Below are positions 17,854-35,414 of a stretch of 64,000 nt of DNA, in pieces. Origin of the DNA: Paralichthys olivaceus (lineage: Eukaryota; Chordata; Actinopteri; Pleuronectiformes; Paralichthyidae); contig NC_091097.1 of NCBI RefSeq assembly GCF_024713975.1, forward strand, positions 1,223,501 to 1,287,500. Direction: 5' to 3'. The notes under the pieces were generated by a model, which was given only the letters and a program-made list of their open reading frames with translations, was not told where the DNA came from and searched no databases. Made by a program: the position numbers and the translations under genes. Position 1 is the first letter of the stretch; the number at the start of each line of letters is the position of its first letter.

Positions 17854-35414
<17,561 letters not shown>

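What the first reader, a model, noticed from the sequence alone, without database searches (positions are those of the whole stretch)
21290..21310. Near-perfect RE1 silencer inside nsf intron 1
Twenty of 21 bases equal the classic REST/NRSF element. REST represses neuronal genes outside neurons, and NSF is heavily used at synapses. Under equal base frequencies the 17-base degenerate core has a chance of about 1 in 4 million per position, so about 0.03 hits are expected on both strands of this window; three perfect cores are seen.
Basis: partly seen in the sequence, partly recalled or inferred. Interest (0 to 1): 0.7.

Follow-up and report, generated by a model that had tools for sequence, protein, structure and literature searches.

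The report
REST silencer sites around fish nsf
A fish gene for the synaptic protein NSF carries, apparently in its first intron, a nearly perfect copy of a well-known DNA switch that keeps nerve-cell genes off in other tissues; it is one of four such switches close together around two neighbouring nerve-cell genes.

Summary
Bases 21290-21310 (+) match the classic 21-bp RE1/NRSE at 20 of 21 positions. It is the window's best site by a REST matrix (27.3 of 32.5 bits; best position outside the four RE1s, 12.2). Its 16-base core is identical to an oligo that restricts reporters to the nervous system in zebrafish (PMC3531662). The nsf intron-1 placement rests on an inferred exon 1 at 17854-17865, with CCAAT and TATA boxes before it and an in-frame join to exon 2 at 27481.

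Four strong RE1s lie within 13 kb: upstream of cdk5r1 (8230), about 0.97 and 0.73 kb before nsf (16818, 17054), and at 21290. Among the first 100 of 1032 genomic core matches, 0 of 94 consecutive triples are this tight; the closest spans 104 kb.

Four NRSEs were already predicted at human NSF, and CDK5R1 is a reported REST target, so the biology is expected: a well-supported new member of a known kind. REST binding, fish conservation and the second nsf copy remain untested: no fish relatives are held, and the genome server stopped answering.

The parts
21290..21310 (+). RE1/NRSE, TTCAGCACCACGGACAGCACC, in inferred nsf intron 1, about 3.5 kb downstream of the inferred start site
   Evidence: 20/21 to the classic RE1; 27.3 of 32.5 bits; distance
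16818..16838 (-). RE1/NRSE, TTCAGCACCATGGACAGCAAC, about 0.97 kb upstream of the inferred nsf start site; perfect core
   Evidence: (25.1 bits)
17054..17074 (-). RE1/NRSE, CTCAGCATCGAGGACAGCGCC, about 0.73 kb upstream of the inferred nsf start site; one core base off
   Evidence: (24.0 bits)
8230..8250 (+). RE1/NRSE, TTCAGCACCTCGGACAGTGAC, 2.1 kb upstream of the cdk5r1 ATG, next to CCAAT-type boxes, 250 bp before a CpG-rich stretch; perfect core
   Evidence: 23.5 bits; CpG-rich 8501-9000; flanks
17728..17761 (+). inferred nsf core promoter: CCAAT at 17728 and TATAAAG at 17755
   Evidence: read, positions; no transcript data
17854..17865 (+). inferred nsf coding exon 1 (ATGACGACCCGG, MTTR, then GTAAG)
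   Evidence: one of 19 ATG-plus-donor candidates listed, chosen for the promoter boxes and CpG-rich setting and the in-frame join MTTR-TMQAARC
17866..27480 (+). nsf intron 1 (if exon 1 is right)
   Evidence: donor GTAAG to acceptor before ACTATGCAAGC
27481..27566 (+). nsf exon 2
   Evidence: tblastn with human NSF, 85% identity; donor GTGAGT and joined reading
27868..34053 (+). stretch holding the further nsf exons matched by tblastn
10343..11439 (+). cdk5r1 (p35) coding region, split by a 98-bp intron at 10850-10947
   Evidence: Pfam PF03261 on both halves; joined reading

Best explanation
The site is a genuine RE1/NRSE, the binding site of the zinc-finger repressor REST/NRSF. With two RE1s just upstream of the nsf promoter and a fourth upstream of cdk5r1 it forms a short multi-site silencer. 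In non-neuronal and progenitor cells REST would dock on these sites and bring its usual corepressors (Sin3, CoREST, HDACs), lowering nsf and cdk5r1 transcription; when REST falls in neurons, both genes are freed to full level. NSF is needed by all cells, so at nsf the array most likely tunes dosage (high in neurons, low elsewhere) rather than switching the gene off. Shown: the sequences, positions, statistics and nsf coding exons from exon 2 on. Inferred: promoter and exon 1, REST binding, repression and the joint action of the sites.
For: 20/21 match; matrix score far above everything else in the window apart from the three sister sites; real versus reversed core 1032 versus 107 genome-wide, and 16 versus 0 for TTCAGCACCNNGGACAGCGCC. 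The base that differs, position 19 A, occurs in 5 of 44 strict-core genomic sites (10 of all 60 read), two of the 5 ending CACC like this one. The 16-base core equals the REx1 oligo tested in zebrafish (nervous-system-only expression in at least 10% of embryos for each of three NRSE constructs, 0 of 114 for the promoter alone; PMC3531662); a pair of canonical 21-mers silences in a Rest-dependent way in zebrafish (PMC3529185, passages). Four NRSEs predicted at human NSF (PMC1794552). CDK5R1 rises on REST knockdown in glioblastoma cells (PMC4881490, passages) and is called a REST target in a review (PMC10471693, passages).
Against: No binding, chromatin or expression data for this fish. In the cdk5r1 paralogue on C21, the 3.5 kb held around its coding end has no RE1 (best 14.7 bits, inside the coding sequence), nor has the C20 paralogue (best 10.4 bits); the flanks further out and the nsf paralogue on C21 could not be fetched. 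PMC4881490 confirmed direct ChIP binding for BBC3 and DAXX, not CDK5R1. About 10% of genome-wide degenerate-core matches are expected by chance. Exon 1 of nsf is inferred: some other ATG-donor candidates lie downstream of 21290 and would, if used, put the site before the gene. I did not test whether this genome holds an intact rest gene.
Confidence: 0.8

Rival explanations
1. The intron-1 site binds REST, but its main client is not nsf: it is one leg of a shared domain whose strongest target is the neuron-specific neighbour cdk5r1, with nsf affected only as a bystander.
For: cdk5r1 ends 6.4 kb upstream of the inferred nsf ATG on the same strand; an RE1 lies upstream of cdk5r1; CDK5R1 is a reported REST-responsive gene; the C10 cdk5r2-like gene also has an RE1, 380 bp past its stop codon (24.7 bits).
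Against: Three of the four sites are nearer to the inferred nsf start than to cdk5r1, two of them within 1 kb; human NSF has its own predicted NRSE group; the C21 and C20 cdk5r1-like genes show no RE1 in the 3.4-3.5 kb held.
Confidence: 0.25
2. The site is bound by REST without regulatory effect, a passenger site.
For: Many bound RE1s have no measured effect on the nearby gene (recalled, no call); the site sits 3.5 kb inside the inferred intron near a CA repeat.
Against: Clustering of four high-scoring sites at two neuronal or synaptic genes, with 0 of 94 comparably tight triples among the first 100 genomic core matches.
Confidence: 0.15
3. Chance match with no REST binding.
For: About one in ten degenerate-core matches in this genome is expected from the reversed control.
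Against: The 21-bp match is far stronger than the core alone requires; permuted matrices reach 20 bits in 1.4% of 500 trials and never 4 times; the stricter pattern gave 16 against 0.
Confidence: 0.04

Closest known systems
Canonical RE1/NRSE as used in zebrafish transgenes (PMC3529185; REx1 of PMC3531662)
   Same: Identical over the 16-base core and at 20 of the 21 bases; fish context
   Different: Natural position, apparently intronic; position 19 is A; function in this gene not tested
Human NSF NRSE group (PMC1794552): four predicted sites in under 100 bp
   Same: Same gene, multiple REST sites in its regulatory region
   Different: Here three sites spread over 4.5 kb around the nsf start plus one upstream of cdk5r1, 13 kb in all; positional homology was not testable
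CDK5R1/p35 as a REST target (PMC4881490, PMC10471693)
   Same: cdk5r1 here has an RE1 about 2.1 kb upstream of its ATG
   Different: The passages read concern human cells or a review; none describes a fish site

Membership tests
RE1/NRSE (REST binding element) | Two half-sites (TTCAGCACC and GGACAGCGCC) with a 2-bp spacer | tested here: met
   20/21 match, spacer 2
RE1/NRSE (REST binding element) | Position-weight-matrix score well above background | tested here: met
   27.3 of 32.5 bits with a matrix from 14 published human sites; best position outside the four RE1s 12.2; 500 permuted matrices. The matrix is mine, so no standard published cut-off applies
RE1/NRSE (REST binding element) | Conservation of the element in related genomes | not testable with these tools
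   No fish relatives held (header); paralogous nsf region on C21 found but the fetch did not complete
RE1/NRSE (REST binding element) | REST occupancy in vivo | not testable with these tools
   No ChIP data offered
RE1/NRSE (REST binding element) | REST-dependent silencing of a linked promoter | not testable with these tools
   Reported for the identical 16-base core (silencing) and the canonical 21-mer (Rest-dependence) in zebrafish, not for this locus
RE1/NRSE (REST binding element) | Lies near a gene used in neurons | tested here: met
   nsf and the cdk5r1 neighbour; that they are neuronal genes is from the papers cited and general knowledge

The most novel reading that the evidence does not exclude
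cdk5r1 and nsf, lying about 6 kb apart in this fish (far apart on human chromosome 17, recalled), form one REST-controlled chromatin domain: the four RE1s act together so that a neuronal kinase activator and the SNARE-recycling ATPase are silenced and released as a pair, and the RE1 array is a reason the two genes stay adjacent.
Probability: 0.12. Interest if true: 0.45.

Novelty: new member of a known kind. Interest (0 to 1): 0.3.

Why it matters
NSF works in every cell, yet neurons need much more of it (general knowledge). A multi-site REST array at its promoter and intron gives a concrete, testable way to set that difference. If the sites hold across fish and match the human NSF group, they would show REST control of a general trafficking gene kept since the fish-mammal split. 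On its own it adds one well-placed example to a known list.

Tried and rejected
Considered and set aside: that the site is chance; that it lies between genes rather than in nsf (judged unlikely: an in-frame exon 1 with CCAAT and TATA boxes before it was found at 17854; but one search listed 19 ATG-plus-GTRAG candidates, some downstream of 21290, and no transcript data decide); that it belongs to a local repeat (region 16500-22000: among the direct families and the 25 of 27 inverted pairs shown, the RE1 itself pairs only with the RE1 at 16817-16838; a CA repeat begins some 60 bases downstream); half-sites with other spacings (spacers 0-25, up to 1 and 2 mismatches per half: only the four 2-bp-spaced sites appear).

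Led nowhere: fetching the C21 nsf and cdk5r1 paralogue regions; a genome search to see whether 21100-21700 is a dispersed repeat, so a repeat origin is not excluded; a mismatch search of the exact site; the Mortazavi paper (not held); paper searches for a fish RE1 survey (one search found no paper with all six terms; one search showed 10 of 15 papers, by title and abstract none about REST); PMC7456045 (names NSF only within SNARE). PMC5516038 (passages) predicts CDK5R1 and the NSF attachment protein gene NAPA among REST-regulated genes; its only mention of NSF is in that protein's name.

Limits of my controls: the matrix rests on 14 unique human sites (16 table rows, 2 duplicates dropped) that their authors had predicted with a profile, not on the 38 validated ones, which sit in a supplement I could not open. 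The triple test uses only the first 100 of 1032 core matches (C1, C2 and part of C3), all that the tool listed. For position 19 I read 60 sites: 20 of the 43 listed on C1, chosen by me for a good core, and the first 40 of 45 on C2, unselected; position 19 played no part in the choice.

Full report
What is there. Window 21290-21310 on the + strand reads TTCAGCACCACGGACAGCACC. Against the classic RE1 TTCAGCACCACGGACAGCGCC this is 20 of 21.

Is it more than chance? With a 21-bp matrix built from 14 published human sites (PMC1794552 table 1), the four sites score 27.3, 25.1, 24.0 and 23.5 bits of a maximum 32.5, and the next best position in the whole window scores 12.2; the best of 100 simulated windows was 21.2. 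In 500 column-permuted matrices, hits at 20 bits or more averaged 0.014 and never exceeded one; the best reached 22.2 bits. In the whole 588-Mb genome the 16-base core occurs 1032 times against 107 for the reversed pattern, and the stricter TTCAGCACCNNGGACAGCGCC 16 times against 0. So roughly 90% of core matches in this genome are excess over the control, and a 20/21 match is stronger than the core alone.

Clustering. At the genome-wide rate 0.11 cores are expected per 64 kb; three are seen within about 13 kb. Among the first 100 genomic core matches (all that one search listed), 8 neighbouring pairs but 0 of 94 consecutive triples lie within 13.1 kb; the closest triple spans 104 kb. On this sample the window is unusual as a cluster, not only for one site.

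Gene setting. Upstream I infer coding exon 1 at 17854-17865: ATG ACG ACC CGG followed by a GTAAG donor, which joins in frame to exon 2 at 27481 as MTTR-TMQAARC (human MAGR-SMQAARC, recalled), in a CpG-rich stretch, with CCAAT at 17728 and TATAAAG at 17755. It is one of 19 ATG-plus-donor candidates listed; the promoter boxes and setting decided the choice, and no transcript confirms it. The next gene upstream is cdk5r1 (Pfam PF03261 on both halves), on the same strand, with the fourth RE1 2.1 kb before its ATG beside CCAAT-type boxes and some 250 bp before a CpG-rich stretch. Further left on the minus strand is a gene whose translated pieces I recognise as psmd11 (recalled, not searched).

Does position 19 matter? 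The only deviation from the classic site is A at position 19. In 60 genomic sites read out, position 19 is G 28, T 20, A 10, C 2; among the 44 with the strict core it is G 22, T 17, A 5, C 0, and two of those five end in CACC exactly as here. The base occurs in natural sites of this genome.

Function known for this sequence. The core TCAGCACCACGGACAG is the same as the REx1 oligo of PMC3531662 (passages; section 13 read): in zebrafish, 0 of 114 embryos with the promoter alone had brain-only expression, against at least 10% for each of three NRSE constructs; the two-element version worked best. PMC3529185 (passages) used a pair of canonical 21-mers and showed by morpholino that silencing needs Rest; the same abstract says NRSEs did not restrict a transgene when linked only to a UAS element. 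PMC1794552 (sections 6 and 23 read) reports four predicted NRSE sites in under 100 bp at human NSF. PMC4881490 (passages) reports CDK5R1 up after REST knockdown, without direct ChIP for that gene; PMC10471693 (passages), a review, calls it a REST target; PMC12202048 (passages) lists CDK5R1 as up in its REST-knockout line, but in a table of sequence variants where the gene also has a 3'UTR insertion or deletion, so this is weak.

Mechanism. Most likely REST binds the four sites in non-neuronal cells and lowers nsf and cdk5r1 through its corepressors, and neurons release both as REST falls. Because NSF is needed everywhere, dosage tuning rather than full silencing is expected at nsf. The binding and repression steps are inferred.

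Results against. The cdk5r1 paralogue on C21 (87% identity) has no RE1 in the 3.5 kb held around it (best 14.7 bits, at the coding words for FITPANV), nor has the C20 paralogue (best 10.4 bits); the C10 cdk5r2-like gene (name recalled) does have one, 24.7 bits, 380 bp past its stop codon. The regions further out and the nsf paralogue on C21 could not be fetched despite 29 tries (last), so the paralogue test stays open, and whether the site lies in a dispersed repeat is also open (and earlier tries). No other fish genome could be aligned. I did not look for the rest gene itself.

Verdict. Observation confirmed; interpretation partly supported, by sequence and literature but not by binding, function or conservation data; with the added point that the site is one of four in a tight array over cdk5r1 and nsf. 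It is a new member of a known kind of element at a gene already predicted to be a REST target in human.

Noticed in passing
window 10850-10947: cdk5r1 here has a 98-bp GT-AG intron inside its coding region (VIVQ | ASTSELM; joined reading). The three related genes found in this genome (L070, L071, L072) read unbroken through this point, and mammalian CDK5R1 coding sequence is unsplit (recalled): a likely intron gain in this copy.
   Followed up: partly
window 16616-16787: A tandem repeat with a 43-bp unit, about four nearly identical copies, ends about 30 bases before the RE1 at 16818.
   Followed up: no
L072 2339-2359: The cdk5r2-like gene on C10 has a strong RE1 (GTCAGCACCTCGGACAGCTCC, minus strand, 24.7 bits) 380 bp after its stop codon.
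   Followed up: partly
window 1-4150, minus strand: Exons resembling proteasome subunit psmd11 (recognised from memory), next to cdk5r1 as recalled for human chromosome 17; nsf as the next gene on the other side is not the human order (recalled).
   Followed up: no
G000:C2:21362742-21362796, C2:8973581-8973662, C2:19818078-19818144: Some RE1 core matches in this genome come in same-strand pairs 39 to 66 bases apart (three pairs among the 100 places listed), hinting at frequent double sites.
   Followed up: no
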